From: Cephalothrix simula
Taxonomy: Eukaryota; Nemertea; Palaeonemertea; Archinemertea; Cephalotrichidae
Direction: 5' to 3'
Length of the DNA: 64,000 bases
Assembly: GCA_035591015.1 (NCBI GenBank)
Contig: JAXIUW010000007.1
Coordinates: 62,001 to 126,000 of the forward strand
In this document: piece after piece, positions 17,100 to 47,013 of the stretch
Numbering within the stretch: position 1 is the first letter of the stretch
How the letters are laid out: every line of letters starts with the position of its first letter
Position numbers and translations under genes: made by a program
The notes under the pieces: generated by a model
The model's database searches: none
What the model saw: only the letters and a program-made list of their open reading frames with translations
What the model was told of the DNA's origin: nothing

Positions 17100-18266
17100 T
17101 TAATTGCCGAGGGGTTGGTCAACTATTTGTGAGAAGGCTAGGTGGTATCCGCGAGAGAATTCTATTTTGGCATTGAGGTTATCTATTTTTAGTTGGTTGC
17201 GGATAAGGCGTCTGAAGCGGCTGGGTTCGCTGTTAGAGAATAGTTCAACTTCTAGGTAGAGGTTGGTATTGCGTCTTTCAACTAGTTTATTTACTCCGGG
17301 CAGGTTTTCAAGGGCGTTGATTATGCGGTCTTCTTGGTCTTCATTGAAGCCGCTGAATGAGATTAGAAAGGGAAAGCCTTGGTTATCAACTTGGGCGTAG
17401 TACTGCGATATTTGGGCTACAGATTCTTTAACGGCCTTGTCAGCGGCTTTTTCAGCAGCGGTGGCGAGGCCTTTTTCTCGGTCGTAGGGGCCTGAGCGTG
17501 ACGGGATGAGTTGTTTACTTTCGTTACGGTTAGATGATATTAAACGTCCGGCCAGAGTGTCAATAACGGCTAGGTTTAGGGTTGCGAATACGGCTGAAAA
17601 CATACCTTGGGTAGACAATTTTTGACCGGCTACAATCTCAAAATCAACTAATAATTCAGCCTGATTTTCTAGAGCTAGTAAGGTCATTTCATCTTCAATG
17701 CGACCGGGGTTATTTGATGGATTTATGTTTTGGTAGATAGAGAATGTTGTTTTTTCATCAAATACTCTAAAGCCATGGGTGCTGAATTGACTTTGTAATT
17801 CTTGAATAGCGGCTCTAACTGCTCCATGGTCGGCGGGCAGAGCATGGCTATTTTGAGGGCGATACACAATGAGCATGCGCCGATTGCCCATTTTTGAGTG
17901 TAGTATGTGGAGAGCTTCTAGTCTGGCAGCCAGTAGATCATTACTAACGGTGGCTTCTATACTAACGCTATAGGCACTGCCACGGCGACCTTCGGCCAGA
18001 ATAGTATAACTTTCAATTAATCCTCTTGATGATGTATAGATAGAATCTTTAATTATTTGAAAGTTTTCGGCGATGGTTTCGCTATCAATCATAACTCCAA
18101 CGCCCTGTTCAATGGCTAGGCGTTGGGCGTTAGATAGGGCTTGCTCTCGGGCAGAAGCTACATTGCCAGATATTATGGCTGCGGTTCCGGTAACGGTAAC
18201 GGTTTGAGCCAGTGCGGCAGTAATCCAAAAGATGCTGACACTAAGCCAGATGATGGTAGTACGCAT
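17100..18266 (-). CDS. Periplasmic protein with FlgT_N/LPP20-like N-terminal domain
   Basis: The 388-residue product begins with a clear signal peptide (RTTIIWLSVSIFWITAALA, cleavage after ALA-Q). The mature N terminus, TVTVTGTAAIISGNVASAREQALSNAQRLAIEQGVGVMI, matches the pattern of the flagellar assembly protein T N-terminal domain and related LPP20-like domains. The remainder has a middle alpha/beta part and a C-terminal region with NALENLPGVNKLVERRNTNLYLEVEL, similar to short secreted beta-alpha-beta repeats. I start at ATG 18266 rather than the TTG two codons upstream. It is the last gene of a three-gene envelope operon. Flagellar function is plausible but unproven. Confidence 0.65.
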   Translation of the reverse strand: MRTTIIWLSVSIFWITAALAQTVTVTGTAAIISGNVASAREQALSNAQRLAIEQGVGVMIDSETIAENFQIIKDSIYTSSRGLIESYTILAEGRRGSAYSVSIEATVSNDLLAARLEALHILHSKMGNRRMLIVYRPQNSHALPADHGAVRAAIQELQSQFSTHGFRVFDEKTTFSIYQNINPSNNPGRIEDEMTLLALENQAELLVDFEIVAGQKLSTQGMFSAVFATLNLAVIDTLAGRLISSNRNESKQLIPSRSGPYDREKGLATAAEKAADKAVKESVAQISQYYAQVDNQGFPFLISFSGFNEDQEDRIINALENLPGVNKLVERRNTNLYLEVELFSNSEPSRFRRLIRNQLKIDNLNAKIEFSRGYHLAFSQIVDQPLGN

Positions 18267-18298
18267 AATCAACGAGGCTTTGCCTCCTCTTGAGTGTT

Positions 18299-26181: not shown

Positions 26182-26988
26182 ATGGATGCAATTAGCAAGG
26201 CTTTCTCTAAGCGTCTTGAACAGGGGCAGAAAGCCCTCATTATTTATTTAATGATTGGCGACAAAAGCCCAGAGTGGACACTAGAATTAGTGCCGAGCAT
26301 TGCTGAGGCTGGAGCAGATATTATTGAGCTAGGCTTTCCTTTTTCAGACCCCATTGCTGACGGACCGATTATTCAGTCGGCAGCACTGCGGGCAATTAAA
26401 CGGTTTGGCAGTATTGATGAATGCCTCAAGCTAACTGCACAGCTACGTGATAAAAGCACAGTGCCGTTGGTGGTGATGACCTATTACAATTTAATTAGGA
26501 ATTATGGTCAGCAAAACTTTGTTGAGAAGGCTCTTGAAGCGGGGCTTAACGGCTCAATAATTCCTGATTTACCGCTCTGTGAGTCTGATGAATGGCTCAG
26601 CGTAACTAAGTCAACACGCTTTAGCCATGTTTTGCTTGAAGCACCAACCACCAGCGCAGAGAATGCGCATTTGATCGCCCAGCAGGCCAGCGGATTTATA
26701 TATTTGGTGGCCTTAAAGGGAGTTACGGGCGCAAAATTACAGGTTACCGATGAGCTATTTGCGAGAGTTAAGCGTTTGCGCCAACATACGCAAATTCCGT
26801 TAGCAACGGGCTTTGGCATTAGTAGCCCAGAGCAGGCACAACAAGCGGCTCAAGTTGGAGACGGCATAGTGATTGGCTCAGCAATGGTCAACATTATTGC
26901 CCAGGCTCAAACTCTGGCTGAAGCTCGCCAGAATTCGGTGGCCTTTGTACGTAGCATTCGCCAAGCCATTGACGCACCAAGTACCTAA
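26182..26988 (+). CDS. trpA: Tryptophan synthase alpha subunit TrpA
   Basis: TrpA cleaves indole-3-glycerol phosphate to indole, which passes to TrpB. Catalytic Glu49 (ADIIELGFPFSDPIADGP) and Asp60 are at the standard positions. The phosphate-binding segments LVALKGVTGAK and LATGFGISSPEQA and the terminal GDGIVIGSAMV are present. The 268 residues are normal. trpB is not adjacent, and trpF lies 16 kb away, so the trp pathway is dispersed. A GAAGAAC precedes the ATG but a strong Shine-Dalgarno is lacking. Confidence 0.96.
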   Translation: MDAISKAFSKRLEQGQKALIIYLMIGDKSPEWTLELVPSIAEAGADIIELGFPFSDPIADGPIIQSAALRAIKRFGSIDECLKLTAQLRDKSTVPLVVMTYYNLIRNYGQQNFVEKALEAGLNGSIIPDLPLCESDEWLSVTKSTRFSHVLLEAPTTSAENAHLIAQQASGFIYLVALKGVTGAKLQVTDELFARVKRLRQHTQIPLATGFGISSPEQAQQAAQVGDGIVIGSAMVNIIAQAQTLAEARQNSVAFVRSIRQAIDAPST

Positions 26989-27151: not shown

Positions 27152-28354
27152 CTAGTGCATCATCAGGTGTTCGGGCTCAATTTCTGGCCCATCGCTGAGT
27201 AGCAAGGCTCTTTCAATTACGTTTTCTAGCTCACGAACATTACCACGCCAGTTGTACTGACAAAGAATTTCTAAGGCAGCCTTAGATAGTCTGGGTTCTT
27301 CACGCTCGTTTTGGGCGGCAAATTGCTCAATAAAGTGGTTGGCAAGCAAGGGAATATCACCCTTACGTTCACGAAGCGGTGGCAATCTGAGGGGTATTAC
27401 ATTAAGCCTAAAGTATAAGTCTTCTCTAAAGTTGCCTTTCTCAACATGTTCTAAGAGATCACGATTAGTGGTGGCGATAACTCTAATATCAACCGGAATA
27501 GGCTCTTTGCCTCCAATGCGATCAATCTCGTGTTCTTGCAATACTCTCAGCAGTTTGGCCTGCAATGATAGAGCCATTTCAGAGACTTCATCTAATAGAA
27601 TAGTGCCTTGATGAGCCTGCTCAAAACGACCTTTATATTCTTTAAGAGCACCGGTGAATGAGCCCTTTTCGTGGCCAAACAGCTCACTTTCTAGCAAGGT
27701 TTCAGGCAGAGCAGCGCAGTTCACGGCCACAAACGGACCATTAATATTCGCTGAACGCTCATGAATGTAGCGGGCGAGCAGTTCTTTTCCGGTTCCGCTT
27801 TCGCTTTGAATAAGGATAGTTGCCTTGCTTTTGGCGACATTCTCAGCTATTCCCAGCAATTTTTGCATATTGCTATCAGCGGTGATAAGGCCACGTGGAG
27901 CCTGACTGGCTGTTGGTGCAGAGCGTGCAGGCTTGGCAGAGGGCAAACTAGCCTTGATGGGAGCTTCTGCGCCATTCTCTGAGTTAGCTAAGGCTCGCTC
28001 TACCAAAAAAACAAAGGTGTCAAACTTAAAGGGCTTCAGAATATAGTCAAAAGCACCTAATTGTATGGCTTTAACGGCGGTCTCTATGGTTCCGTAGGCG
28101 GTAACCATCAATACGGGAATTTTTTGGTCTACAGCACGAATATCTTTAAGCAATTCAATGCCGCTACGCTTGGGCATAGTCATGTCGGTAATCACCATAC
28201 GGTATTGGCTTTTGCTGCGAATTTTCTTAATAGCATCAAGGGCATTATGCGAAAGTTCAACCTTGTAGCCGGCATGTTTAAGCGTTTCAGACATTGCCAA
28301 ACGCATTTCTACCTGATCATCAACAATTAATATGGGCAAGGTTTCTTTTTTCAT
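27152..28354 (-). CDS. Sigma-54 response regulator lacking a DNA-binding domain (FlgR-like)
   Basis: The 400-residue regulator has a receiver with phosphoacceptor D57 (VITDMTM), T85 and K107 (LKPF). A Pro/Ala linker leads to a complete AAA+ domain: Walker A SESGTGKE (184-191), sigma-54 loop GSFTGA (231-236) and Walker B ILLDEVSEM. The protein stops just after the AAA+ lid (NVRELENVIERALLLSDGPEIEPEHLMMH), so the C-terminal Fis-type HTH is absent. No HTH is encoded immediately beyond the stop. Helicobacter FlgR is a known natural example that activates from solution. The kinase gene is 56 bases upstream, so this is a cognate pair at the end of the bactofilin operon. Flagellar control is inferred only from that analogy. 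Confidence 0.9.
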   Translation of the reverse strand: MKKETLPILIVDDQVEMRLAMSETLKHAGYKVELSHNALDAIKKIRSKSQYRMVITDMTMPKRSGIELLKDIRAVDQKIPVLMVTAYGTIETAVKAIQLGAFDYILKPFKFDTFVFLVERALANSENGAEAPIKASLPSAKPARSAPTASQAPRGLITADSNMQKLLGIAENVAKSKATILIQSESGTGKELLARYIHERSANINGPFVAVNCAALPETLLESELFGHEKGSFTGALKEYKGRFEQAHQGTILLDEVSEMALSLQAKLLRVLQEHEIDRIGGKEPIPVDIRVIATTNRDLLEHVEKGNFREDLYFRLNVIPLRLPPLRERKGDIPLLANHFIEQFAAQNEREEPRLSKAALEILCQYNWRGNVRELENVIERALLLSDGPEIEPEHLMMH

Positions 28355-28410
28355 CAGTTGGTTAAGATGCGCAAGATTATGATGTTAAACAACAATATTA
28401 AATGGCAATA

Positions 28411-29685
28411 TTAAGCGACAATATGGGGAAATGAAAGTCTAAATGTGCTGCCTTTATTGGGCTGTGAGGTAACGCTAATCGTACCATGATGCGCTTCAAC
28501 TATACTATGAACAATGGCCAAGCCCAACCCCGTCCCCCGAGCTTTGGTGGTATAGAAGGGGTCAAAAATATTTTTTTTAGCTTGCTCGGGCATGCCCACG
28601 CCACTATCAGCAAAGTGGATTTCAACGTTTTTTTTCTGAGTATTGTTTTTAGTTTGAATGCTAAGTTTGCCGCCATTTTCTTCCATGGCCTGAATGGCAT
28701 TAAGAATTAAATTATGAAACACCTGCCGTAGATGGTCAGCATCAGCCTGAACCAATGGATTGCCAGCATCTAGGTTAATCGACACTTTAACATTATTGTG
28801 TTCAGCTTGTAGCGCAGTAAAGGCAACTACCTGTTCTAACAAAGTATTAACACTAACTTTGTCTAGCTTTACCGCCCGTGGTTTGGTGTATTCAAGCAGA
28901 TTAGAGATAATATTATTCATGCTGCTGACCCCGCTTGAAATATGATCAAGCAGCTCGTAATTACTGCTACTTTTATCGGTATTTTTTTTGATTAGCGAGG
29001 TAAATAATTCAATTCCGCCCAGCGGGTTTCTGATTTCATGAGCGATATTAGCGGCCATTTCACCCATGGCGGTAAAGCGATCACGGCGGATGGCCTGTTC
29101 TTCAAAATGCTTCAGCTGAGTTATATCTTCAACATTAACTAGGTAGCCAGCGGCTTGCCCCTGCTCATCACGCATGAGGGCGGTATAGATGCGCAAGGTT
29201 TTAGGTGGCTCGCCCAACAGGCTTTCAAAGTGTTCAGGGGTCTGACTTTTACTGGCTGAAAAATTAAAATTTAGCACAGCACCCACCGCCTGACCAGATA
29301 AATCATCAATGCTCTGTTGTGCCAATTCTAAACCAGCACGGTTCACAGAAAGTATTTGGCCGGCCATATTGGTTACAAAAACACCGTTGGCTTGGCTTTC
29401 AAAAATGTTGGTAAGATATGTTTTAACGCGTTCTTTTTCAAGCAGATTAAGCTCTAATTCATTATTTTTTTTGTCTAATTCGCCATGCAGAATATCAACT
29501 TTTTGCTTAAGGCTTTTGTATTCGCTTTGCAGTTTTTCAGCCGATTCAATGAAGCGTGAAAAACCCTGATCCATTAAATGGCGGCTTTGTTCTAGCTCTA
29601 GCTCTTTTTTGCTTAACTCAAGTCGCAGGGCTTCATTTTGTTCTTGAAGCGATTCTGCAGTGCTTAGTGACGCTGAAGACTTCAT
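28411..29685 (-). CDS. Soluble PAS-histidine kinase (FlgS/AtoS-like)
   Basis: This is a 424-residue kinase without any transmembrane segment. A coiled coil fills residues 10-90. A PAS domain follows (about 90-190; IFESQANGVFVTNMAGQILSVNRAGLE). The HisKA box is MAANIAHEIRNPLGGIELF with the phospho-accepting His216. The HATPase domain has the N box HNLILNAIQAM, G1 FADSGVGMP, and G2 GTGLGLAIVHSI. The family resembles FlgS/AtoS kinases that phosphorylate sigma-54 activators. The start overlaps the stop of the upstream AMIN/TPR gene by four bases, so translation is coupled. With no membrane domain the signal must be intracellular, possibly from the coupled cytoskeletal proteins. Confidence 0.92.
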   Translation of the reverse strand: MKSSASLSTAESLQEQNEALRLELSKKELELEQSRHLMDQGFSRFIESAEKLQSEYKSLKQKVDILHGELDKKNNELELNLLEKERVKTYLTNIFESQANGVFVTNMAGQILSVNRAGLELAQQSIDDLSGQAVGAVLNFNFSASKSQTPEHFESLLGEPPKTLRIYTALMRDEQGQAAGYLVNVEDITQLKHFEEQAIRRDRFTAMGEMAANIAHEIRNPLGGIELFTSLIKKNTDKSSSNYELLDHISSGVSSMNNIISNLLEYTKPRAVKLDKVSVNTLLEQVVAFTALQAEHNNVKVSINLDAGNPLVQADADHLRQVFHNLILNAIQAMEENGGKLSIQTKNNTQKKNVEIHFADSGVGMPEQAKKNIFDPFYTTKARGTGLGLAIVHSIVEAHHGTISVTSQPNKGSTFRLSFPHIVA

Positions 29686-32483
29686 TCTTTCAAGTATTGG
29701 TCGTAGTTAAGTAAGTTTCTGAGATCACGCTGATTTTCTCGTGCCATGGCTTCCCATAATTCGCCGGGCGTGTCTTTAGCCATTTCTACTAGTCTATCAA
29801 ATACGGCCAGTGCTTCGTTCAATCGGCCATTACGGCGATGAATAACAGCAGTATTGAAAATAGCCCAAGGTGTGCGACCATTTTGCGGATAGAGTTCTAT
29901 GGCTTGGCTGTACGCATCTAAGGCTTCTTCGTCCTGCCCTAACTCTAGTAGCATATCACCAATCAAGAATTGTTCACTAATAACAAATTCAGGCACATAT
30001 TCGCCCTGCAACGGATGAGTAAAGCGCCGAATACTCTGCTGATAGGCAGCGTAGGCATTTTTGAACTCGCCCAGCAAACGATAAATCTCGCCCATCTCAA
30101 AATATGCCTCGGGCAATGCCTCAACTAAGCTAGGACTTTGTTTTTGATTGTATTCATTAATGATTAGCTGATAGGCAGTGATGGCTTTATCATAACGGCG
30201 GGTGTCTTGATAGATTTTTCCGAACAGCATTTGTGCATCAACACGATAGGTTTGGTAGCTGTCATTAGTAAGAAAGTCGTATAGAGTTTTTTCAGCACTG
30301 CCCAAATCGTCTAAAAAGTCGTATAGGCTAGCGATTTCAAAGTCTACCAACTCTAGCAGATCATGTGCTACGCTTGTTGGGTCTTCAATCTCTTTGCGCA
30401 ACTTTAGTAGCTGGTCTAAGGCTTCTTCAGGCAGGCTGATATTCTTATAAGCCATAGCCACCTGAAACTTTGAAATAGGCGCAATATTACGCAAATAGTG
30501 GGTTTTGTACTCCATGTAGAGCTTGATTACTTCAAGACTGTCATTTTTTAAGAATAGCTCGTTGATTAGCCCATAAATGGCGTCACCAAAGGCTCTGCCC
30601 CAAGTCTCGGCCTTAATGTAGCCGCTATCGGGATAGGTTTTCGCAAATAATTCGGCACTATTTAGAGCATCTTCATAGCGTTTGTGCAGGATTAACGTAA
30701 ATATTTTACGCATCCAAGCATCTTGATTGACCGCATCAGAATAATTGCGGGCGATGATGTCATCATAGAGCTTAACCGCCTGTAAATATTCATCACCATG
30801 TGGCGATAGTGAATAAATATCGGCTTCGTGCATATTAGCCATGGTGGCAATGGGTAGCGGAGCAGTTTCAGCTACTTCTTTATAAATTTTCAGAGCTTTA
30901 GCGGTGCGTCCCTCAGCATGGAGTAGGCTTGCCTGCCGAATACTGGCCAGCTTGCTATAGTTCTTGTCAGGATAGCTTTGGATAAGTTTTTGAAACAAGA
31001 AGTTAGCTACGTCATGGTCAGCATTTTCGTAATAGGTCTCGCCCATGCGAAATAGCAGCAAGGGTTTGTCATAAGGATATTCTGGATTAAGCCTGCGCCC
31101 TTGAGTAAATTCGGCATCAGCATCCTTAAAATTGCCCTCACTATAGTAGATCTCACCCAAATTATAATGCGATAGAGCCAGTAGGTTTTCAGACTTATCG
31201 GGGCTGGCCAAAAAGATATCAAGGCTTTTTATGGCTTCGTCAATCTGCTTGAGGCGCACCTGAGAAATACTTTTGTAAAAGTAAGAATCGCTTGCATAGG
31301 GCTCATCATGAGGAAACTGCTTTTCAAGCAAGTTAAGATAATCAATGGCTTCAACATGAAAGTCCATATTTTGATAGCTGAGTGCCGTCTTGAGCAAGGC
31401 CTCGCCCATCCAGTACGGACGGATGCCGAGGCGACTAATATTGCGAATTACCGTTTGATAAAGCTCAATTACCCCGTGCCAGTTTTGGGCTTGGTTGCGC
31501 TGAGCTTCATCAAAGGCGATGTTGGCCATTTGTAGATTGGCATAGACGCCAACCAATGTATTAGGCCGAGCCCGCATAACTCTGGCATAGGTCTTACTAG
31601 CGGCTTGAGGGCGGTTTAAGATCATCTCTCGCTTAGCAAGCTCAAGCAGCCCTAATACGCCACGGTCTGTTTCACTAGCTAAAACTTCTTGCTCGGTAAT
31701 CGGCTCTATGTAGTGCGGATCAACGGGCGGTGGCGGCGGTGGCTTGGGTTTGGCTAGACTAATTACATAGCGGGTCGGATTATTATATAGCTGAACTTCT
31801 GCGAGGTATTCATTGCGCCTAATGCGAATATTAATAAGTGTGTCGCCATCTTTGGTTTCTACAGACTCTATGCCCATCCATTCATTACCGGGGGGCAGTT
31901 TGAGGCGAAGCAATGGCCTAGAATTAGACACTTTCAGCGTGTACAGATTGCCTGATTGCTCTTCTGAATAAGAATGCGAGCTAGTAAAGCTAAGGGTAGC
32001 CTGTGCCGGCTGAATGCGATTATTAAACTCAATTTTGGTTAATAAAGACTTTGGCGTCCGAGGGACTATTTTAACCGCAAAGCCAGCCTGATTTGGCTTG
32101 GGATTACTGATTTCGGCAACTTCAAGATCAGAGCGTCTAAAGCGAATTTTAGCAAAAAGTTTGTCAGCATCACGCTCAAAGGCAATGCCGTAAATTATGG
32201 GGTCGTTATAGGTGAATTGAGTTTTGGCTTGGTTTACGTTTTGAACGGCATCAAAAAAAGTAACCGTGGCTACACGCTTATCAAGCTGAGCGTTGACCTC
32301 ATAGCGGGTGGGTTGGTCAAGATCAAAAATAAGATTAAGCCAGTTGCCACTTTTGCTAAGCAAAATATCATCAATCACGGCTAGCCCAGTTTGGGCGTAG
32401 GCGGGCTTAGCTGCAACAAATAAAATGATTACAGCGCAATAAAAATTAATCTTGGCGACTATTCGTAGCACTCGCACCGCCAT
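29682..32483 (-). CDS. Large periplasmic protein: AMIN-like domain plus TPR array
   Basis: The 933-residue product starts with a signal peptide (AVIILFVAAKPAYA-Q). Residues about 35-235 form two beta-rich units resembling AMIN domains (LLSKSGNWLNLIFDLDQPTRYEV, then TLINIRIRRNEYLAEVQLYNNPTRYVISL). AMIN domains direct proteins to peptidoglycan or the cell middle. A proline run (KPKPPPPPPVDPHY) follows, then about 650 residues of TPR-type repeats such as SYFYKSISQVRLKQIDEAIKSLD and AYFEMGEIYRLLGEFKNAYAAYQQSIRRF. It overlaps bactofilin upstream and the kinase gene downstream. It is probably an envelope scaffold or sensor for the kinase, but this is inference from operon structure. Confidence 0.78.
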   Translation of the reverse strand: MAVRVLRIVAKINFYCAVIILFVAAKPAYAQTGLAVIDDILLSKSGNWLNLIFDLDQPTRYEVNAQLDKRVATVTFFDAVQNVNQAKTQFTYNDPIIYGIAFERDADKLFAKIRFRRSDLEVAEISNPKPNQAGFAVKIVPRTPKSLLTKIEFNNRIQPAQATLSFTSSHSYSEEQSGNLYTLKVSNSRPLLRLKLPPGNEWMGIESVETKDGDTLINIRIRRNEYLAEVQLYNNPTRYVISLAKPKPPPPPPVDPHYIEPITEQEVLASETDRGVLGLLELAKREMILNRPQAASKTYARVMRARPNTLVGVYANLQMANIAFDEAQRNQAQNWHGVIELYQTVIRNISRLGIRPYWMGEALLKTALSYQNMDFHVEAIDYLNLLEKQFPHDEPYASDSYFYKSISQVRLKQIDEAIKSLDIFLASPDKSENLLALSHYNLGEIYYSEGNFKDADAEFTQGRRLNPEYPYDKPLLLFRMGETYYENADHDVANFLFQKLIQSYPDKNYSKLASIRQASLLHAEGRTAKALKIYKEVAETAPLPIATMANMHEADIYSLSPHGDEYLQAVKLYDDIIARNYSDAVNQDAWMRKIFTLILHKRYEDALNSAELFAKTYPDSGYIKAETWGRAFGDAIYGLINELFLKNDSLEVIKLYMEYKTHYLRNIAPISKFQVAMAYKNISLPEEALDQLLKLRKEIEDPTSVAHDLLELVDFEIASLYDFLDDLGSAEKTLYDFLTNDSYQTYRVDAQMLFGKIYQDTRRYDKAITAYQLIINEYNQKQSPSLVEALPEAYFEMGEIYRLLGEFKNAYAAYQQSIRRFTHPLQGEYVPEFVISEQFLIGDMLLELGQDEEALDAYSQAIELYPQNGRTPWAIFNTAVIHRRNGRLNEALAVFDRLVEMAKDTPGELWEAMARENQRDLRNLLNYDQYLKE

Positions 32484-32862
32484 CTACCTCGGCAGTATTA
32501 GACAACATTCTACAACTTCCCTGATATTCAGCACCTGATTCTATTGATAACTTCCCCGTCTCAATATCTCCATGTACAGTGCCATGCAATAAAATATCCA
32601 CTTTGTTAAGGGCAGTGATATTTCCATGAACAATTCCGCTAATCACTATTGAGCTGCAGTTAATATCACCTTTAATTTCAGCAGATTTGCCAATAACTAG
32701 GGTTGATGAACTATTTTCTTTTTCATTTATATTGCCGTCTATAGAGCCGTCTATGCGCAATAATCCTGCAAACTCAATTTGCCCATCAAGTTTGGTGTGA
32801 CTACTTAAAACGCCCATTTCTGAACTTGAGGCCGGCGGTTTTTTTGCATTTGATTTGGGCAT
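32446..32862 (-). CDS. Bactofilin (first copy)
   Basis: Bactofilins are beta-helix proteins that polymerise without nucleotides into cytoskeletal filaments at the membrane. The DUF583 pattern of short repeats with hydrophobic residues every sixth position is clear from residue 20: LDGQIEFAGLLRIDGSIDGNI, IKGDINCSSIVISGIVHGNI, VDILLHGTVHGDIETGKLSIESGAEYQGSC. The low-complexity N terminus (PKSNAKKPPASSSE) is typical. I use the ATG at 32862 rather than the TTG two codons upstream. The 3' end overlaps the TPR gene by 38 bases. A second bactofilin is encoded at 36919-37254. Confidence 0.93.
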   Translation of the reverse strand: MPKSNAKKPPASSSEMGVLSSHTKLDGQIEFAGLLRIDGSIDGNINEKENSSSTLVIGKSAEIKGDINCSSIVISGIVHGNITALNKVDILLHGTVHGDIETGKLSIESGAEYQGSCRMLSNTAEVDGGASATNSRQD

Positions 32863-32864
32863 TG

Positions 32865-33575
32865 TCAACTATTTGTAGAAAAAATATCACGGTGCAGAGC
32901 ATGGCGTTCACGCTGCAACATTCCGCCCCGTAAAGAAAATAAATACACCACCACATGAGTAAACACATCATCGGGCGCATCAAGGCGAATGCTGCGGCGG
33001 TAGCGAGCCCAATTTTTGATTGTCGGAATAAGCAATCCTCGCTTATAGAGCTTAGGGAAACCCTCGTTATTTAGTGCTGTTTTGGGGCTGGATATAAACT
33101 TGTTCTCGGAAAGATTCTCAAAGATAACAAACATAAATGCGCCTTGCACCGAGGCCGAGCTGTCTTTGTTGCGAGTGACCATTATACGTGCTGTAAGAAT
33201 GTTGCCAGATTTAGACACTCCCTCTAAAGATACCTCTAGCGGCGATAAATATTCACTGACCAAATATTGCTCTTCGTCAACAATGTCGGACGGTTCTGCG
33301 CTAAAAGAGCTGATTAGGTTTTGTAAGGCTTCATCGTCATCAAGAACAGCAAGCTGTTGGCGAAGCAAGGTGTTTTCTTTGATATAGGCTTCAAGATGCA
33401 GGGCTTGCTGAGTAGCTTGAAGATAATAAATAGTAGCACCAAACAAGGCTAAGCCAAGCATGATGGGCATTACAAACAGGCCAATCATGAACGAGCGAAC
33501 TAGCCAAATCGGCAGCATAATTACTCGGGGATGCCCCTTAGAGGTGCTTATATGTATGGTACAGGTATTCTTCAT
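32865..33575 (-). CDS. Membrane protein of the bactofilin operon
   Basis: The 236-residue protein has a short N-terminal cytoplasmic beta-like segment (NTCTIHISTSKGHPRVIML), one transmembrane helix (about residues 25-50), then a coiled-coil stretch (QATQQALHLEAYIKENTLLRQQLAVL) and a periplasmic alpha/beta domain of about 150 residues. The N-terminal layout of helix plus coiled coil resembles M23 peptidases often encoded beside bactofilins, but no peptidase motifs (HxxxD, HxH) are present. It may be a non-enzymatic relative that links bactofilin to the cell wall. ATG 33575 is preferred over a GTG two codons upstream. It is the first gene of the operon. Confidence 0.65.
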   Translation of the reverse strand: MKNTCTIHISTSKGHPRVIMLPIWLVRSFMIGLFVMPIMLGLALFGATIYYLQATQQALHLEAYIKENTLLRQQLAVLDDDEALQNLISSFSAEPSDIVDEEQYLVSEYLSPLEVSLEGVSKSGNILTARIMVTRNKDSSASVQGAFMFVIFENLSENKFISSPKTALNNEGFPKLYKRGLLIPTIKNWARYRRSIRLDAPDDVFTHVVVYLFSLRGGMLQRERHALHRDIFSTNS

Positions 33576-33717
33576 AGCCACGCAGTCTTACTACTGGTTC
33601 AAGATATTAGCATGAACAAGCTAAAAACTATAATTAGAAGCACCGTGATGGCTAAGAATAGTGCGTAAGTTCAACAACTAAGGTAGGCTATCTTAAAAAG
33701 ATAGATTAAAGATTGGG

Positions 33718-34632
33718 CTAGATGGCTTCTTCAAGATGGCCTTCATCAATGCTTGGCAGGCCAGCATCATAACTATATTCTGGAATAGAGAGCTTCCAAC
33801 TCTGTGGACTTTCTAGCAATTCGGCCATTAGCTCTTTGTGCAAGCTATGCCCTGAACGCAGACCACGATACTCGCCGAGTATCGGATAGCGAAGCAAAGA
33901 CAAGTCGCCAATGGCATCAAGTATTTTATGTCGTATAAATTCATCGGCATAGCGCAATCCATCCTGATTGAGCAGACTGCCGTTTTTGCCTAAAGTAATT
34001 GAATTATCAAGGGTTGCTCCTAAAGCCAGCCCGTTAGAGGTAAGGTGTTTGTAGTCTTCAATAAAGCCGAAGGTTCGTGCTCGGGCAATTTCTGCAGTAT
34101 AGTTTTGCGGGGTGAGCTTTAGCTTCATTGACTGATAGCTGAGTAAGGGATGCTCAAAATCAATGGTGGCGGTAAACATGCTGCATTGAGCCGGCCACAA
34201 CTCGGCACGGCGTTGATGGTTGCCAACCTTAATCGGTTTAAGGATAGTGATATATTTGCGTGGTGCATCTTGGGTGCGCAGGCCAACTTTAAGAATATTG
34301 CTTACAAAGGGGTAGGCACTGCCATCCATAGCCGGTATTTCTCCGCCACGACAACGGATAAGAGCATTATCAATGCCCAGTCCACGCAGGGCAGATAGAA
34401 TATGCTCTACGGTATAAAGATGCGCTCCTTCAGCAGCCAAGGAGGTATTGTAGCGCACATCAGTTATTGATGTTGCTCGGGCATCTATATCAATGAGGTT
34501 ATTGCCATGAGAAACTCTAAAAACTATGCCATGATCAACGGGAGCAGGAAATATCTCTACACTAGCACCAGCACCACTGTGCAATCCAGTGCCGACCATT
34601 CTTAGAGAGCTACGGAGAGTTTTTTGTTTCAC
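33718..34632 (-). CDS. lpxC: UDP-3-O-acyl-N-acetylglucosamine deacetylase LpxC
   Basis: LpxC is the zinc enzyme catalysing the committed step of lipid A synthesis. The zinc ligands are visible: His77 in TVEHILSAL (catalytic Glu76) and His235/Asp239 in RHKILDAIGDL. His262 (SGHSLH) is the general acid. MDGSAYPFV and RTFGF are also family motifs. The 304 residues are normal. The start is a GTG at 34632 with no clear ribosome site. The gene implies that the organism makes lipid A, consistent with the GT9 array but unusual for many host-adapted spirochetes. It stands between selB and the bactofilin operon. Confidence 0.96.
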   Translation of the reverse strand: MKQKTLRSSLRMVGTGLHSGAGASVEIFPAPVDHGIVFRVSHGNNLIDIDARATSITDVRYNTSLAAEGAHLYTVEHILSALRGLGIDNALIRCRGGEIPAMDGSAYPFVSNILKVGLRTQDAPRKYITILKPIKVGNHQRRAELWPAQCSMFTATIDFEHPLLSYQSMKLKLTPQNYTAEIARARTFGFIEDYKHLTSNGLALGATLDNSITLGKNGSLLNQDGLRYADEFIRHKILDAIGDLSLLRYPILGEYRGLRSGHSLHKELMAELLESPQSWKLSIPEYSYDAGLPSIDEGHLEEAI

Positions 34633-36918: not shown

Positions 36919-37254
36919 CTACTTGCTTTTATCTAACAAATCGCATTGGCCATTAAAGATAGCACCGGTATTTATTGATAGCTGCCGAGCTTGAATATTG
37001 CCATTTATCTTAGCGGTATTGCCAAATACAGCCTCATTTTCAACGATAATATTGCCCTCAATTTGACCATCAACAACTAGCTCCGCTGCATGAACATCAC
37101 CCTTAATCCGAGCTTCTTTGCTCATAGTAACCGCACCGGTGCTTTTAAGATTGCCCTCTAGCTGGCCGTTAAAGCGTATATTAGCATTGCTTTGCAAGTT
37201 GCCCCGTAAGCGCATAGTGTTGTTGATAATGCTGATATCTTTGGTCTTGGTCAT
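36919..37254 (-). CDS. Bactofilin (second copy)
   Basis: This 111-residue bactofilin is shorter than the first copy and close to the minimal DUF583 domain. Repeats such as LRGNLQSNANIRFNGQLEGNL, AVTMSKEARIKGDVHAAELVVDGQIEGNI and QLSINTGAIFNGQCDLL show the regular Gly/hydrophobic spacing of the beta-helix. It follows parB by 27 bases in the bamD-like/parB operon. In Myxococcus and Caulobacter bactofilins position chromosome-partition or morphogenetic proteins, so the pairing with ParB is suggestive. Confidence 0.93.
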   Translation of the reverse strand: MTKTKDISIINNTMRLRGNLQSNANIRFNGQLEGNLKSTGAVTMSKEARIKGDVHAAELVVDGQIEGNIIVENEAVFGNTAKINGNIQARQLSINTGAIFNGQCDLLDKSK

Positions 37255-40288: not shown

Positions 40289-42133
40289 ATGGCAAGAGAT
40301 AGCATGAATAGAGGGCCAAACTTGTTTCACCCTGAAAAGCCAAGTGCAGTAGGCTCAAGAAACAGCCTTAATCGCGATGGCAGAAACGAGTATGAAGAGT
40401 CTAAGCTAATAGTTGATGAAGAGGTTGACAAGGTTGTTAATCATATTCATGCCAAGCTGCCACCAGAGGTGTTAGAGAAGATTGATGTGATGGGCAGCAT
40501 AAAATCTAAGTTGCACAATTACTACAATCAAAGCTATCAGAACATGTACAACCGCTACTTGGTTACCATGGAAGATGAGCTTAGTAAGAAGGTTCGTGAC
40601 TTAGTTGACAAAGAAGAATACAAAACGCTTCATCGCTATACCCCTCGTGAAGTGGCTGAATTGCTCGACAAGATTGGCGGTATGGATAAATTTAATACCG
40701 GTGAAATTGAAAAGTCGGTAGTAAATATCTATGGCCACTTGCAAGGTCATATTCAGCGTGGATTCTATGAGTTAGAGAACGAAACCAATGCTCTGTTGCG
40801 CCAAAAGCAAGACGTGGGTGCTTTTGTACGTGGTGAAAACTCTTATGCTATTGCTAAGTGTTCATTCAAGAATAACTTCTTTAAGCCTAAAACGGTGATG
40901 GACGTAAAACTGGCCATTAACGTTTTAGATAGTGAGCTGATTAGTAGGGTCTACCATTATGAGATACCTACTGAAACAATTATCAAAGATGTTATTAGCA
41001 AGCATATTCATGAACTAGTTGAACGTGAAGTGAAAGAGCTAAACTCAGCTTTGATTGATGAAGGTAAAGAAGAACTTACCGAGTCAGAGATAATGTTTGA
41101 AAAAATGAAGGCTCTTGAAGACTATGTTGATGACGAGCCAGAAAATGAGCAAGCTCGCCGCTATCAGTTTGTGGCCAAACGCTTTATGGATAAAATTGAA
41201 GGCTTGCAAGCCGAGATTGATCCTGGTGACTATGACCCGCTTAATATTCGTGAAAATATTCAGCGGATTATTGAAAGCGAAAACTTCCGTAATCGTGGTT
41301 TTAATACTATTGTTAATTCAATAACCTCTATCTTAGACACCTCTAAGATGGGTTACCAGCATGTTGAAAACTTTAAGAATGCTCGTGAAGCCGTGATTCG
41401 TGAGTATGAAGACACCGATATTAACGGCTTGCCTGATGAGCGTTATACCATTCGTGTTACCTACTATGATGACTTGCAGATTAACGCCATGCGTAATGCG
41501 TATGATATTCAGTTCAGCGAGCTACTTACTGAAATAATGAAGGTGGTTGATGTTGCCAATGTTCTTTATGAAGACATGAAGGCTTCCACTGGCACGCAAG
41601 ACTATGAAGACATTGCTGAAAGCTACTTGGCACCTAAAAAGCCTCGTGGTTGGTTTTTCTCACGTAATGAAGAAGAACCTGCTCCCAAAGAGCCTAAGTT
41701 GTGGAATGAATTAACCTTCATCCCGCCGGCAGAAGGAGATAATGAAAAGTCTAGCCGAACTAACATTCATCTAACTGAAGAGTTTCGCAATCGTATGGGT
41801 GATGTAAGAGAAAAACTAACAAAGATTTTCAAAAATGAGCACCCAGTTGAACGCTCTATTGTTGAAAACAGATTGCGTTTTCTTGAAGAGAAGTTTGAAG
41901 AGTTTGATGCAATGGTTAATCCGTATCACATATTGCCGGGCATCTTGCTAGATATCAATATTACTTCTATCAAGCGCAAGAAGACCACCATGGCTACTAT
42001 GGCTAACGTATTGAATGAGTTCTTGTATACTATATCTAAGGGCTTCCATGATACAGCCTTTGCCGATTTCTCAAGGCGTCGTTCAACGGTTAGAGAGGAT
42101 ATAACCCAAACCTTTGAAAGCATCACCGAGTAG
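40289..42133 (+). CDS. cfpA: Cytoplasmic filament protein A (CfpA)-like protein
   Basis: This 614-residue soluble, highly charged, mainly helical protein has no signal peptide or membrane segment. Segments such as EEVDKVVNHIHAKLPPEV, KFNTGEIEKSVVNIYGHLQG and QDVGAFVRGENSYAIAKCSFKNN match my recollection of the spirochete CfpA family. These proteins build the cytoplasmic ribbon filaments that run beneath the periplasmic flagella and affect cell division. This is memory-based and not a search result. The gene has a GGAG eleven bases before the ATG, stands alone, and has even codon use. CfpA is largely a spirochete marker, which drives the taxonomic inference for the window. Confidence 0.78.
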   Translation: MARDSMNRGPNLFHPEKPSAVGSRNSLNRDGRNEYEESKLIVDEEVDKVVNHIHAKLPPEVLEKIDVMGSIKSKLHNYYNQSYQNMYNRYLVTMEDELSKKVRDLVDKEEYKTLHRYTPREVAELLDKIGGMDKFNTGEIEKSVVNIYGHLQGHIQRGFYELENETNALLRQKQDVGAFVRGENSYAIAKCSFKNNFFKPKTVMDVKLAINVLDSELISRVYHYEIPTETIIKDVISKHIHELVEREVKELNSALIDEGKEELTESEIMFEKMKALEDYVDDEPENEQARRYQFVAKRFMDKIEGLQAEIDPGDYDPLNIRENIQRIIESENFRNRGFNTIVNSITSILDTSKMGYQHVENFKNAREAVIREYEDTDINGLPDERYTIRVTYYDDLQINAMRNAYDIQFSELLTEIMKVVDVANVLYEDMKASTGTQDYEDIAESYLAPKKPRGWFFSRNEEEPAPKEPKLWNELTFIPPAEGDNEKSSRTNIHLTEEFRNRMGDVREKLTKIFKNEHPVERSIVENRLRFLEEKFEEFDAMVNPYHILPGILLDINITSIKRKKTTMATMANVLNEFLYTISKGFHDTAFADFSRRRSTVREDITQTFESITE

Positions 42134-43535: not shown

Positions 43536-44327
43536 ATGCAGTCCGAAGATTTTGACGTAAAGATTATGGGCGTGCTTAATCGGACGCCTGATTCTTTCTC
43601 GGATGGCGGTAGATACATGCCTCTCTATAAGGCTGTAGAGCATTCTTTGCGCCTTGAAAAGCAGGGTGCCGATTATCTTGATATTGGTGGAGCATCATCG
43701 CACCATAAGGCAGCCAAGATATCTCAAGAAGAAGAAATAAGCCGTGTTCTAGATCTAGTAACTGCCCTAGAGGGTAAAATAAGTATTCCGCTGTCAATTG
43801 ATACTAGTCATCACAAATTAATAGAGCATTGCGCTGACAAAATAGACGTTATCAACGATATAAGCGGAGCAACTAATCATAAAATGGCTGATTTAGCTGC
43901 TGAATATAACTTGGCACTAACTATAACCTACAATAACAATAACATAGACCAATCAGATTTTTCTCTGGATAACATGGAAAGCTTTTTTGAAAGCCAGCTT
44001 CAGTGGGCTAGTAATCGTGGAGTGAAGCGTCTTATGCTTGATCCGGGCTACGGCTTTGGCAAGAGTGTTCCAGAGAACATTTTAGTAATCAAAAACATAC
44101 CGCGAATCAAGGCTTTTGGTTACCCGGTGATGAGCTGCTTGTCGCGTAAACGCTCATTATCAAAAATCAGCGGTAATGATTCGCCTGCTAGCGATAGGTT
44201 GGCTGAAACCCTAGCCGCTACTATTTACAGTGTAGAGCAGGGTGCCAATATTTTGCGGGTTCATGATGTAGACAAGATTAACTATGCGCTTAGGGTGTGG
44301 GGAGTATTCAAGGGTTATAGCGGCTGA
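43536..44327 (+). CDS. folP: Dihydropteroate synthase-like protein (divergent FolP)
   Basis: DHPS joins pABA to the pterin diphosphate in folate synthesis. Conserved features are IMGVLNRTPDSFSDGG (Asn15), SIDTSH (Asp89), INDISG (Asn107/Asp108), LDPGYGFGK, SRKRSLS (Lys205) and RVHDV (Arg241, His243). Two signatures are altered. The loop usually reading DIGGESTRPG is DIGGASSHHKAA (50-60), and the LMHMRG-type strand is ALTITYNNNN (127-136). These loops contact pABA and close the active site. The protein may be a DHPS with changed loops or a paralogue with another substrate. The 3' end overlaps the convergent GT9 gene by 20 bases. Confidence 0.8.
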   Translation: MQSEDFDVKIMGVLNRTPDSFSDGGRYMPLYKAVEHSLRLEKQGADYLDIGGASSHHKAAKISQEEEISRVLDLVTALEGKISIPLSIDTSHHKLIEHCADKIDVINDISGATNHKMADLAAEYNLALTITYNNNNIDQSDFSLDNMESFFESQLQWASNRGVKRLMLDPGYGFGKSVPENILVIKNIPRIKAFGYPVMSCLSRKRSLSKISGNDSPASDRLAETLAATIYSVEQGANILRVHDVDKINYALRVWGVFKGYSG

Positions 44328-45501
44328 TACGCTGTAGTTGTTGTTTGATGGCCTGCATAACTTCTAGAGGCTCAATATAGCGCAGGCACGAATAGTGAGG
44401 ACAATGCCGTGGTGAGCATTTGCCGCACTGATAATCTAACTTAGGGAAGAGAATATAGTCATCAATGTTTGGCTGATCGGCTTGGGGCAAGGGCTTCCAT
44501 TTCTGAAATGGATAGCGGAAGTTAAGTTGATTGATGCCTACATGCGGTGTCTCAACTAATGAGGCCAGATGCAGTGGCCCGGAGCTATTACCCACAAACA
44601 GACTAGCTTTTTTAATGAGTACGCATAACTCAGCAATGCTCATTGAAAATTCGGTGCGGAGGTGCGAGTTGTGTAGCAATTCATGGTAGGCTTCACGTAT
44701 GGTAGATTCTTCATTTTTTACGCCAATTAGTATTACTCTGTGGCCTTCATTCAATAATTGTTTGGTTAGTTCTACAAAATTTTGGACTGGCCAGCTTAGA
44801 CCGGTATCGTTAGACTTGAGAGGTTGGACGGCTATATAAGCATAACCAGAGCTTAGCCAGTCTTGAATAATTACTGGTGGAGATATGCCGTCTAGATTAA
44901 TCCGTGGTTTAACATAGGTGCTATTTAATCCCAGCCATTGTAGTGTGCCCAACACACGATCGTACTCATTAATATCGGTATTTATTGAGCGCGCTTGCCC
45001 TGGCACTCGCCAGGACCAAATTAAACCTCTTAATTCTTTGTAATGGCCAATAACACGGGGTATTTTGGCCGCTTTGATTAACGAATTTACACGCTTTTGG
45101 GTAACAAAAGTTATTGCCGCATCAAAGTTATGCGACTTTATTTCAGCCAATAGTCGTCGGTAGGCGTGGTACCACTTAATCAATTTCCTTAATATTTGAG
45201 GCAGCCTAATAAGGTGGCGTGGTAGTATAATTGTCTGGCGCAACAAAATATCTGGATCAATAATTATAGTGTTTGCATAGTTAGTTAGATTAAAAATATC
45301 CCCAATGACATCCGAGGTTAAAACATAAACTTCTATATCAGGGCGTTGCTGTTTAAGCGATGCTAATGTTGGCAAACTAAGCACACCATCACCAAGCGCA
45401 TCACAGCGCACAATCAATAATTTTTTAATTGCTTCGCTTTCGGGTGCAGTAATTGGTGCAGGATAGATTATTTGTTGCTTCAAGCGCTCTAAGATACGCA
45501 T
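44308..45501 (-). CDS. GT9 (heptosyltransferase-like) glycosyltransferase 1
   Basis: This is the most distal of five paralogues. GT9 enzymes transfer heptose or related sugars from ADP-heptose to LPS core acceptors. The N-terminal Rossmann start is KKLLIVRCDALGDGVLSLPTLASL, and the C-terminal donor-binding loop is FVGNSSGPLHLASLVETPHVGINQ. All copies share a Cys-rich tail, here CGKCSPRHCPHYSCLRYIEPLEVMQAIKQQ. The length is 397 residues. The ADP-heptose specificity is a family inference. The stop overlaps the convergent folP. Confidence 0.85.
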   Translation of the reverse strand: MRILERLKQQIIYPAPITAPESEAIKKLLIVRCDALGDGVLSLPTLASLKQQRPDIEVYVLTSDVIGDIFNLTNYANTIIIDPDILLRQTIILPRHLIRLPQILRKLIKWYHAYRRLLAEIKSHNFDAAITFVTQKRVNSLIKAAKIPRVIGHYKELRGLIWSWRVPGQARSINTDINEYDRVLGTLQWLGLNSTYVKPRINLDGISPPVIIQDWLSSGYAYIAVQPLKSNDTGLSWPVQNFVELTKQLLNEGHRVILIGVKNEESTIREAYHELLHNSHLRTEFSMSIAELCVLIKKASLFVGNSSGPLHLASLVETPHVGINQLNFRYPFQKWKPLPQADQPNIDDYILFPKLDYQCGKCSPRHCPHYSCLRYIEPLEVMQAIKQQLQRISRYNP

Positions 45502-45822
45502 AAAATTAATCTAAGGTTTATATTGATGGTCTCCACGTAAATCAGAAAACCACAGACTAGCTTTGGTTGGTTATCGTAGAGACAGAGTAGGAAGATTATC
45601 AATAAGAGGCCACGCTCAATACATATCTTTATATGAGCTAGAACCACTCCGTGCCGATGCTACATCAATTTGCCCAACACATCAATATCAAGAGCTTCTG
45701 TTCTAATCAGGTATGACAATTAACGTTTATAGCAAGCCTAGATAGAATTTATTAGTGGTGGATAAAGAATTTTCTGTCAGTACTGAAACCATGTAGAGCA
45801 GATTATTTGAATGATATATAGG
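45502..45822. repeat. Repeated spacer 1 of the GT9 array
   Basis: This 321-base spacer is strongly similar to the spacer at 48521-48843 and less so to the one at 47014-47329. Shared blocks include GACTAGCTTTGGTTGGTTAT and GTGCCGATGCTACATCAATT. The latter block resembles, on the minus strand, the end of the fifth GT9 gene (codons for KIDVVSV). No gene is present, although the spacer should carry signals for the downstream paralogue. Confidence 0.75.
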
Positions 45823-47013
45823 CTAGCCCAAGCTTGTCTTGCGCTGTAGTTGTTGTTTGATAGTCTGCATTACTTCTAGAGGTTCAATATAGCGCAGGCA
45901 CGAATAGTGCGGGCAAGCCTCCTGTGAACACTCGCCGCACTGGTAATCTAACTTAGGAAAGAGAACATAGTCATCAACGTTCGGCTGATCGGCTTGGGGC
46001 AAGGGCTTCCATCTATGGAATGGGTAACGGAAGTTAAGTTGGTTAATGCCCACATGTGGTGTATCAACCAATGATGCCAGATGAAGTGGTCCAGAGCTAT
46101 TGCCCACAAACAGGCTAGCCTTGTTAATAAGCACGCAGAGCTCAGACATGCTCATTGAAAATTCGGCTCGCAGGTGCGAGTGGTGTAGCAATTTTTGGTA
46201 GGCTTCGCGCACGAATGCTTCTTCATTTTTTGTTCCAATCAGGACTATCCTCCAGCCCTCATTCAATAATTGCTTGGTTATTTCTATAAAATTTTGGATT
46301 GGCCAGCTCAAACCGCTAGGTTTAGACTTGAGGGGTTGCATGGCTATGTAAGCATAATCGGAGCTTAGCCAGTCCTGAATAATTGCTGGCGGAGATATGC
46401 CATCTAGGTTAATGTGCGGTTTAACATAGGTGTTTTTTAGTCCAAGCCATTGTAATGAGCCCAGAGTACGATCGTACTCATTCATATCATACATGGTTGG
46501 ATAGAGCGGATCAGGAATTTGCCAGTGCCAAATCAGGCCACCTAGCGCATAATAATTACCGAGTATATGTGGTATTTTTGCAGCTTTGAGCAACTTTACA
46601 ATGGGCTTTCGCGAAGCCATACCCAATGCTGCATCAAAGTTATATGGTTTTATTTCAGCTAAAAACGCATAATATACGCGGTACCAATTAGCCAGGTTTT
46701 TAAATCTATTTGGCTGCTTAATAAGGTAGCGCGGAAGCAGGCGGTACTCGCGCAGAAAATTTTTAGGCAGAATAATTATGTTATCTACGTAGTTGGTAAG
46801 TTCTAGAATACCTCTAGCCATATCCGAAGTTAGAATATGAACTTCTATATCGGGGCGTTGCTCTCTGAGTGATGCTAATCCCGGCAAGGTCAGTACAATA
46901 TCGCCAAGCCCATCGCCACGCACAACCAACAACTTCTTGATTGCTCTGCTTTCGGCTGCTGTAATCGGCTCAGGGTATATCAGTTCGTACCGTGAGCGCT
47001 TAAAGAGAGGCAT
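45823..47013 (-). CDS. GT9 (heptosyltransferase-like) glycosyltransferase 2
   Basis: This 396-residue paralogue starts MPLFKRSRYELIYPEPITAAESRAIKKLLVVRGDGLGDIVLTLP. The C-terminal half from TEFSMS/AEFSMS to the end is almost the same as in copies 1, 3 and 4. The N-terminal acceptor half differs, for instance LGMASRKPIVKLLKAAKIPHILGNYYALGGLIWHWQIP. This division suggests a common donor and different acceptors. The Cys cluster here is CGECSQEACPHYSC. It is flanked by repeated spacers on both sides. Confidence 0.85.
   Translation of the reverse strand: MPLFKRSRYELIYPEPITAAESRAIKKLLVVRGDGLGDIVLTLPGLASLREQRPDIEVHILTSDMARGILELTNYVDNIIILPKNFLREYRLLPRYLIKQPNRFKNLANWYRVYYAFLAEIKPYNFDAALGMASRKPIVKLLKAAKIPHILGNYYALGGLIWHWQIPDPLYPTMYDMNEYDRTLGSLQWLGLKNTYVKPHINLDGISPPAIIQDWLSSDYAYIAMQPLKSKPSGLSWPIQNFIEITKQLLNEGWRIVLIGTKNEEAFVREAYQKLLHHSHLRAEFSMSMSELCVLINKASLFVGNSSGPLHLASLVDTPHVGINQLNFRYPFHRWKPLPQADQPNVDDYVLFPKLDYQCGECSQEACPHYSCLRYIEPLEVMQTIKQQLQRKTSLG

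What the first reader, a model, noticed from the sequence alone, without database searches (positions are those of the whole stretch)
27152..33575. Bactofilin-AMIN/TPR-kinase-HTH-less activator operon
Five overlapping or nearly touching genes couple a cytoskeletal filament protein and periplasmic scaffold to a soluble two-component pair acting on sigma-54 promoters. I know of no described system in which bactofilin or an AMIN/TPR scaffold feeds a FlgS/FlgR-like pair. It may report cell-envelope or flagellar assembly state to transcription.
Basis: partly seen in the sequence, partly recalled or inferred. Interest (0 to 1): 0.75.

Follow-up and report, generated by a model that had tools for sequence, protein, structure and literature searches.

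The report
Scaffold operon wired to flagellar kinase
In one lineage of SAR324-type bacteria, genes for a cytoskeletal filament, a membrane anchor and a cell-wall-side scaffold that resembles a flagellar motor part sit in one operon with a kinase and gene activator of the type that times flagellum building, which suggests that the cell may read assembly state directly from the scaffold.

Summary
The five genes are real and tightly packed (33581-27152, minus strand). Seven of 32 SAR324 genomes carry the same order, and an eighth contig its last three genes; in all 8 the kinase start overlaps the scaffold stop (ATGA). In the other 24 the scaffold gene stands apart from the pair, so the linkage marks one clade. 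"HTH-less" is not a property of the system: 28 of 28 complete relatives in the tree have a Fis-type helix-turn-helix; only the window copy lost it. The kinase N-terminus matches FleS (17.8 bits; best of 2000 shuffles 7.2), though its core scores higher with AtoS. Unlinked pairs lie by chemotaxis genes or flagellin in 3 of 6 neighbourhoods read, all one clade. The AMIN/TPR protein's best solved structural match is the Campylobacter jejuni motor scaffold (Foldseek E 4e-17, low TM-score). The first gene has LmdC's bactofilin-binding anchor layout, with an Ig-like domain instead of the peptidase. Best reading: a flagellar-assembly checkpoint module; contacts, signal and target promoters are inferred. 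The FliF and RpoN searches did not complete, so flagella in the window genome are untested. New variant of a known kind.

The parts
32865..33581 (-). 238-aa bitopic membrane protein: N-terminal beta-hairpin (residues 6-24), long helix holding membrane span and coiled coil (25-93), Ig-like beta-sandwich (115-228); LmdC-like anchor without M23 peptidase
   Evidence: AF2 model pLDDT 83.5; hydropathy peak 2.28 at residue 31; 8-row alignment; no Pfam or NCBIfam family at E 0.001
32446..32868 (-). bactofilin (140 aa, TTG start)
   Evidence: PF04519 91.8 bits, cut-off 27.9; 33-39% identity to the bactofilins of 7 relatives' blocks
29682..32483 (-). 933-aa protein with hydrophobic N-terminus, two AMIN-type beta-sandwiches (35-245), proline linker (247-258), TPR solenoid (264-932); PflA-like layout
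   Evidence: TPR families; AMIN in relatives; AF2 model pLDDT 83.6; top Foldseek PDB hit 9hmf_K; hydropathy peak 2.15 at residue 5
28411..29685 (-). soluble histidine kinase: N-terminal coiled coil, PAS, HisKA (HEIRNPL), HATPase_c; its ATG overlaps the scaffold stop (ATGA)
   Evidence: no membrane helix (max 19-mer Kyte-Doolittle 1.11); N-terminal module matches FleS
27152..28354 (-). sigma-54 response regulator: receiver, AAA+ with GSFTGA loop, lid; C-terminal HTH lost in this lineage
   Evidence: alignment with HTH-bearing relatives and downstream frames; 68-71% identity to relatives
33718..34632 (-). lpxC, same-strand neighbour 136 bp upstream of the block; an lpxC also lies about 5.5 kb upstream of the block in L004 and L007
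34767..34782 (-). sigma-54-like -24/-12 match (10 of 11 positions) upstream of lpxC; weak
   Evidence: one of 4 sites with at least 10 of 11 on both strands of 64 kb; none with at least 9 in the 600 bp upstream of 7 relatives' blocks

Best explanation
The operon encodes a flagellar-assembly checkpoint module of the FlrBC/FleSR kind in which scaffold and sensor are made together. The AMIN/TPR protein is exported and acts as a PflA-like periplasmic scaffold at the flagellar site. The bitopic anchor crosses the inner membrane: its cytoplasmic hairpin docks on the bactofilin polymer, its periplasmic coiled coil and Ig-like domain meet the scaffold or the wall. The soluble kinase, through its N-terminal coiled coil and PAS domain, reads completion of that assembly (or of the MS ring nearby) and phosphorylates the activator, which drives sigma-54 promoters for rod, hook and later genes. 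In the window lineage the activator works without DNA tethering. Shown: gene order, start/stop overlap, domains, a FleS-like sensor module, conservation in one clade, HTH loss. Inferred: PflA-like role (structure and layout only), hairpin-bactofilin docking (by analogy with LmdC), kinase contact with the scaffold side, flagellar target promoters.
For: Five-gene order in 7 of 32 SAR324 genomes plus a partial eighth; ATGA overlap of scaffold and kinase in 8 of 8 and in the window. N-terminal module of the kinase family hits FleS at 17.8 bits against 7.2 for the best of 2000 shuffles; AtoS is not among the hits shown. Regulator profile: FlrC is the best chain of central-domain length, 338.7 bits, ZraR 330.9. 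Unlinked pairs lie beside CheW-CheB-CheR (L067, L069) or near flagellin (L070). Scaffold model's top PDB hit is the C. jejuni motor scaffold, E 4.3e-17, next 2.0e-13; the published PflA layout is the same (passages). The anchor has the hairpin-helix layout by which LmdC binds bactofilin. B. subtilis bactofilins are needed for hook and filament assembly (PMC4627819, start of abstract and passages).
Against: In 24 of 32 genomes the scaffold is apart from the pair. The kinase profile scores higher with AtoS (216) than FleS (155), the regulator with AtoC (457) than FleR (428). The shuffle control does not exclude a generic coiled-coil match, and only one FleS and one AtoS were compared; in tblastn other kinases than FleS also cover 93-97% of the query. 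The three chemotaxis/flagellin neighbourhoods are one clade; three others read (L068, L077, L080) show none by eye. TM-score to 9hmf_K is low (0.27, rmsd 30), TPR solenoids match each other promiscuously, 9hmf is not in the printed rows of the second alignment, and no PflA turned up by sequence. Three relatives' blocks lie next to PBP2. No clear flagellar core gene among the 39 of 61 window ORFs scanned. FliF and RpoN untested.
Confidence: 0.45

Rival explanations
1. Two separate modules share a transcript: a morphogenesis set (anchor, bactofilin, AMIN/TPR) and a FleSR-type pair whose signal is the ordinary MS ring-rotor-export complex. Co-transcription sets dosage or place, without direct signalling.
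For: In 8 of 32 genomes the pair stands apart from the scaffold and in 15 the regulator has no kinase orthologue, while the scaffold is present in all 32 (they were chosen by it). FlgSR, FlrBC and FleSR respond to MS ring, rotor and export parts (PMC7064773, passages).
Against: The ATGA overlap of scaffold and kinase is kept in 8 of 8 block genomes and the window although the proteins have drifted to 30-39% (scaffold) and 46-50% (kinase) identity with the window; the block state falls on one branch of the scaffold and kinase trees.
Confidence: 0.3
2. Envelope or growth-site reporter: bactofilin, anchor and AMIN/TPR mark sites of wall synthesis and the pair tunes envelope genes through sigma-54, unrelated to flagella.
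For: The block lies beside PBP2 in L004, L008 and L010, with MreC and a sub-threshold MreD in L004; lpxC is upstream in the window, L004 and L007; AMIN domains are usually wall- or envelope-binding (recalled); bactofilin papers listed are mostly on cell shape (starts of abstracts); kinase and regulator score highest with AtoS/AtoC.
Against: FleS-like N-terminal module; chemotaxis or flagellin neighbours of some unlinked pairs; motor scaffold as top structural match. The PBP2/MreC neighbours converge on the block, so are not co-transcribed, and are not beside it in the window.
Confidence: 0.2
3. In the window lineage the regulator is decaying or has become a modulator: HTH loss is the start of loss of function, as the kinase orthologue is missing in other SAR324 clades.
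For: HTH absent only here; long window branch in all three trees.
Against: Receiver, Walker motifs, GSFTGA loop and lid are intact at 68-71% identity; H. pylori FlgR is a working HTH-less activator (recalled).
Confidence: 0.05

Closest known systems
FlrBC (Vibrio) / FleSR (Pseudomonas) flagellar two-component systems
   Same: soluble PAS kinase, adjacent sigma-54 regulator; N-terminal module aligns to FleS; Fis-type HTH in relatives
   Different: encoded with bactofilin, anchor and AMIN/TPR instead of between fleQ and fliE/fliF; window regulator lacks HTH; kinase and regulator score higher with AtoS/AtoC
FlgSR of Campylobacter/Helicobacter
   Same: cytoplasmic kinase with coiled coil (passages); an HTH-less activator as in H. 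pylori FlgR (recalled)
   Different: kinase has a PAS domain; NCBIfam FlgS and FlgR cut-offs not met
PflA periplasmic motor scaffold (Campylobacter, Helicobacter)
   Same: exported N-terminus, beta-sandwich, flexible linker, TPR solenoid (passages); C. jejuni motor scaffold is the top structural match
   Different: two AMIN-type sandwiches, 933 against about 800 aa, no PflA found by sequence
LmdC-BacA (M23 peptidase with bactofilin)
   Same: cytoplasmic beta-hairpin, single membrane helix, periplasmic coiled coil, gene overlapping the bactofilin gene (passages; model)
   Different: Ig-like domain in place of the M23 peptidase

Membership tests
FlrB/FleS-type flagellar kinase | cytoplasmic, no membrane helix | tested here: met
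   max 19-mer hydropathy 1.11
FlrB/FleS-type flagellar kinase | PAS plus HisKA/HATPase_c | tested here: met
   PF00989 24.0 bits over cut-off 22.6; HisKA 54.0; HATPase_c 98.7
FlrB/FleS-type flagellar kinase | N-terminal coiled-coil module like that of FleS | tested here: met
   17.8 bits to FleS residues 21-81; best of 2000 shuffles 7.2; generic coiled-coil similarity not excluded by this control
FlrB/FleS-type flagellar kinase | closest to FleS over the whole profile | tested here: not met
   AtoS 216 bits against FleS 155; so it is called FleS-like, not a FleS orthologue
FlrB/FleS-type flagellar kinase | encoded among flagellar genes | tested here: inconclusive
   not so in the window block; chemotaxis genes or flagellin near 3 of 6 unlinked pairs whose surroundings were fetched, one clade; FliF search unanswered (and earlier)
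FlgS/FlgR (Campylobacter type) | NCBIfam cut-offs | tested here: not met
   kinase 105.2 of 600, regulator 325.6 of 750 bits
FlrC/FleR/FlbD-type sigma-54 regulator | receiver, AAA+ with GAFTGA-type loop, HTH | tested here: not met
   receiver and AAA+ present but no HTH in the window; HTH in 28 of 28 complete relatives in the tree
PflA motor scaffold | exported beta-sandwich + linker + TPR solenoid | tested here: met
   AF2 model against the published layout (passages)
PflA motor scaffold | sequence homology to PflA | tested here: inconclusive
   no PflA among PDB sequence matches at E up to 10, but the one entry seen is a C-alpha trace whose sequence may not be held
PflA motor scaffold | sits in the motor and binds PflB | not testable with these tools
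   needs cryo-electron tomography or pull-down
LmdC-type M23 peptidase | N-terminal hairpin, membrane helix, coiled coil | tested here: met
LmdC-type M23 peptidase | C-terminal M23 domain | tested here: not met
   no Pfam family; Ig-like sandwich in the model
Bactofilin | PF04519 above cut-off | tested here: met
   91.8 bits, cut-off 27.9
AMIN domain | PF11741 above cut-off | tested here: inconclusive
   L005 22.3 over cut-off 20.5; L009, L024, L026 below; window no hit

The most novel reading that the evidence does not exclude
A transmembrane assembly checkpoint in which a periplasmic AMIN/TPR motor scaffold, through a peptidase-less LmdC-type anchor and a bactofilin polymer, switches a FleS-type kinase: the cytoskeleton itself would be the unidentified factor by which such kinases could sense flagellar assembly indirectly, and one lineage fires it through an untethered, HTH-less activator.
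Probability: 0.2. Interest if true: 0.85.

Novelty: new variant of a known kind. Interest (0 to 1): 0.55.

Why it matters
How FlrB and FleS sense the export-ring checkpoint is open: the authors had not detected direct contact with FliF or FliG and name an indirect route through an unidentified factor as one possibility (PMC7064773, passages). An operon that makes a FleS-like kinase together with a PflA-like scaffold, a bactofilin anchor and bactofilin names concrete candidates that two-hybrid and kinase assays can test. If true, it would also give bactofilins a role in gene regulation and give the peptidase-less LmdC layout a function.

Tried and rejected
Considered and set aside: a plain AtoSC system (AtoS aligns only from profile position 90, FleS from 35), though cores score highest with AtoSC; an HTH in another frame (none); a sigma-54 promoter of the operon (one 10-of-11 site before lpxC, 4 such in 64 kb, none with 9 or more upstream of 7 relatives' blocks, none with 8 or more before the L070 flagellin); sigma-70 promoters and terminators (18 and 7 found, 15.6 and 7.5 expected by chance).

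Led nowhere: single-sequence search with the anchor; the profile gave 6 proteins, those with a name called hypothetical. Fold search of the anchor gives generic Ig-like/FnIII matches. VIA-align on the scaffold prints TPR-type solenoids, without 9hmf. CfpA against plasmids: no match. The taxonomy of the window stays open: scaffold, kinase and regulator place it with SAR324 on long branches, but a nearby protein is CfpA, known to me and from the listing from treponemes.

Dropped rows and limits: L011 (identical to L010) and L024's weak kinase paralogue were left out of alignments. In L007 the AMIN/TPR gene is split over two frames. 'Apart' means not within the fetched stretch (up to 8 kb each side; some contigs end near the gene), with the regulator orthologue found at another place in 23 of the 24 genomes. 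The regulator tree uses 29 SAR324 rows; the L066 fragment and the G008 copy (match ends at profile position 407, ambiguous bases follow) were left out, as was the G008 kinase from the kinase tree. The kinase-identity script stopped with an error before its last domain. only waited.
Full report
OBSERVATION. The five genes stand as described on the minus strand: a 238-aa membrane protein, a bactofilin, a 933-aa AMIN/TPR protein, a soluble PAS histidine kinase and a receiver-AAA+ sigma-54 regulator. Neighbours overlap by 4, 38 and 4 bp; the regulator follows after 56 bp. lpxC lies 136 bp upstream on the same strand and what looks like trpA (26182-26988, by eye) converges downstream. In the window's own assembly (8.6 Mb in 580 contigs, no relatives held) the kinase search gave itself and two weak matches at 27 and 35% identity.

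RELATIVES. A profile search of species genomes with the AMIN/TPR protein returned 33 loci in 32 genomes (L010 and L011 are identical), titled SAR324, Lambdaproteobacteria or Delta-/Proteobacteria. The order anchor-bactofilin-AMIN/TPR-kinase-regulator is present in 7 of 32 genomes (L004, L005, L006, L007, L009, L010, L013; the regulator is cut by the contig end in L006 and L013, and the AMIN/TPR gene is split over two frames in L007). An eighth contig (L008) begins inside the AMIN/TPR gene and continues with kinase and regulator. In all 8 the kinase ATG overlaps the AMIN/TPR stop as ATGA, as in the window. In the other 24 genomes none of the four partners lies within the fetched stretch around the AMIN/TPR gene (weak paralogue hits in L024 and L034 only). 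In 4 of 5 such loci that I listed, the gene follows what look by eye like dnaG and rpoD. A regulator orthologue is found in 31 of 32 genomes (616-969 bits; G031 has only paralogues) and a kinase orthologue in 16 of 32 at E <= 1e-100: the 8 block genomes and 8 with the pair elsewhere. Fifteen keep the regulator without a kinase orthologue; one neighbour scanned there is an RsgA-type GTPase (L071). The block state falls on one fully supported branch in the AMIN/TPR tree (33 rows) and the kinase tree (16 rows). The window is on the block side but on a long branch. The SAR324 paper splits the group into non-marine Group 1 and marine Group 2 and reports flagellar genes in all its genomes (PMC9031357, passages); that the block clade is Group 1 is my inference from record titles.

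THE REGULATOR. Relatives carry a Fis-type helix-turn-helix (GNRTQAAKMLSISIRTLRNKLNEY and variants): 28 of 28 complete SAR324 rows in the tree; the 29th is cut by its contig. The window copy ends after the AAA+ lid, and no frame behind it holds one. Receiver, Walker motifs and a GSFTGA loop are intact.

WHICH KIND OF PAIR. By whole-profile scores the pair is nearest AtoSC. The sensor part says otherwise: the family's N-terminal module (model 36-96) aligns to FleS 21-81 with 17.8 bits against at most 7.2 in 2000 shuffles; AtoS aligns only from profile position 90. Shuffles do not rule out a generic coiled-coil match, and in tblastn several other kinases besides FleS also cover 93-97% of a relative's kinase. 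[quoted passage not shown] The regulator profile's best solved chain of central-domain length is FlrC, 338.7 bits, with ZraR close at 330.9. Of 6 unlinked pairs whose surroundings I fetched (G008, G014, G018, G020, G024, G030), two precede CheW-CheB-CheR genes (L067, L069; only L067's were scanned, where a CheA-like kinase follows too) and one lies about 5 kb from a flagellin gene (L070); these three form one clade, and the other three show nothing flagellar by eye. I take the pair as FleSR-like at moderate confidence.

THE SCAFFOLD. AMIN hits appear in four relatives, one above cut-off. The model (pLDDT 83.6) has a hydrophobic N-terminus, two beta-sandwiches (35-245), a proline linker and a TPR solenoid (264-932). 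I had raised PflA as a candidate (signal peptide, beta-sandwich, linker, TPR solenoid) before the model was finished and the PDB was searched. That search put the C. jejuni motor scaffold chain 9hmf_K first, E 4.3e-17 over 826 columns; the next hit is 2.0e-13 and 9hmf_L is rank 44. The row names the scaffold, not the protein; that chain K is PflA and L PflB is my inference from their lengths. TM-scores are low (0.27 and 0.31) and TPR repeats are promiscuous, so this is support, not proof.

THE ANCHOR. The first protein has no family. Its model shows a hairpin (6-11, 19-24), one long helix holding membrane span and coiled coil, and an Ig-like sandwich. [quoted passage not shown] The hairpin region aligns in all 8 rows. 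Possible bactofilin starts in 4 of 7 relatives (L005, L007, L009, L010) read (M/V/L)FG(K/N), like the membrane-targeting consensus MFSKKKK (PMC12448750, passages); the window's does not.

MECHANISM. The kinase is cytoplasmic and the scaffold has an export signal, so coupling needs a bridge; anchor and bactofilin are the obvious one. I propose that completion of the scaffold at the flagellar site is passed through anchor and bactofilin to the kinase's coiled coil and PAS domain, and on to sigma-54 promoters. Each contact is inferred.

AGAINST. Twenty-four of 32 genomes do without the linkage. Three block loci lie beside PBP2 (L004 by similarity to L008, L008, L010; L004 also MreC and a sub-threshold MreD), which fits a cell-elongation role as well. 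Among the 39 of 61 window ORFs of 100 aa or more that I scanned, the only flagellar-named hit of note is a borderline FlgT_N. The FliF and RpoN searches did not complete (last).

PRIOR ART. Searches found no paper with all their terms. Listings (20 of 27 shown; 25 of 65; 15 of 333; 2 of 3) showed bactofilin work on shape and motility (for example PMC4627819), and I saw no system joining bactofilin to a sigma-54 pair. Only the open-licence library was searched and only passages of seven papers besides the SAR324 one were read; the rest I saw as listings.

Noticed in passing
window 40289-42133 (+): Cytoplasmic filament protein CfpA (NF040882, 876 bits, cut-off 500), a treponeme-type protein by its name, although the operon's relatives are SAR324; taxonomy of the window unresolved.
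   Followed up: partly
window 17100-18272 (-): Protein with a borderline FlgT_N domain (29.7 bits, cut-off 28.8) and weak LipL46 similarity, beside an unnamed 394-aa protein and a CvpA-like gene.
   Followed up: partly
window 5726-7105 (-): Second sigma-54 response regulator, best NCBIfam match NtrX (505 of 600 bits), with HTH_8.
   Followed up: no
window 36919-37254 (-): Second bactofilin beside parB and a TPR/BamD-like protein; a bactofilin-ParABS link is known in Myxococcus (listing).
   Followed up: no
window 44308-51236 (-): Run of heptosyltransferase-like genes of about 400 aa; three scanned with Pfam, one with NCBIfam.
   Followed up: no
L025, L026, L030, L033: In these marine SAR324 loci the AMIN/TPR gene lies behind what look by eye like dnaG and rpoD; meaning unknown.
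   Followed up: no
L007 13540-15297, L008 5141-6859, L010 13485-15227: FG-GAP-repeat protein (Pfam in L008 and L010, BLAST-similar in L007) convergent with the block, followed by an unnamed protein of about 340 aa, also in L004.
   Followed up: partly
L010 and L011: Two contigs of one MAG hold identical 18.7-kb stretches, an assembly duplicate.
   Followed up: yes
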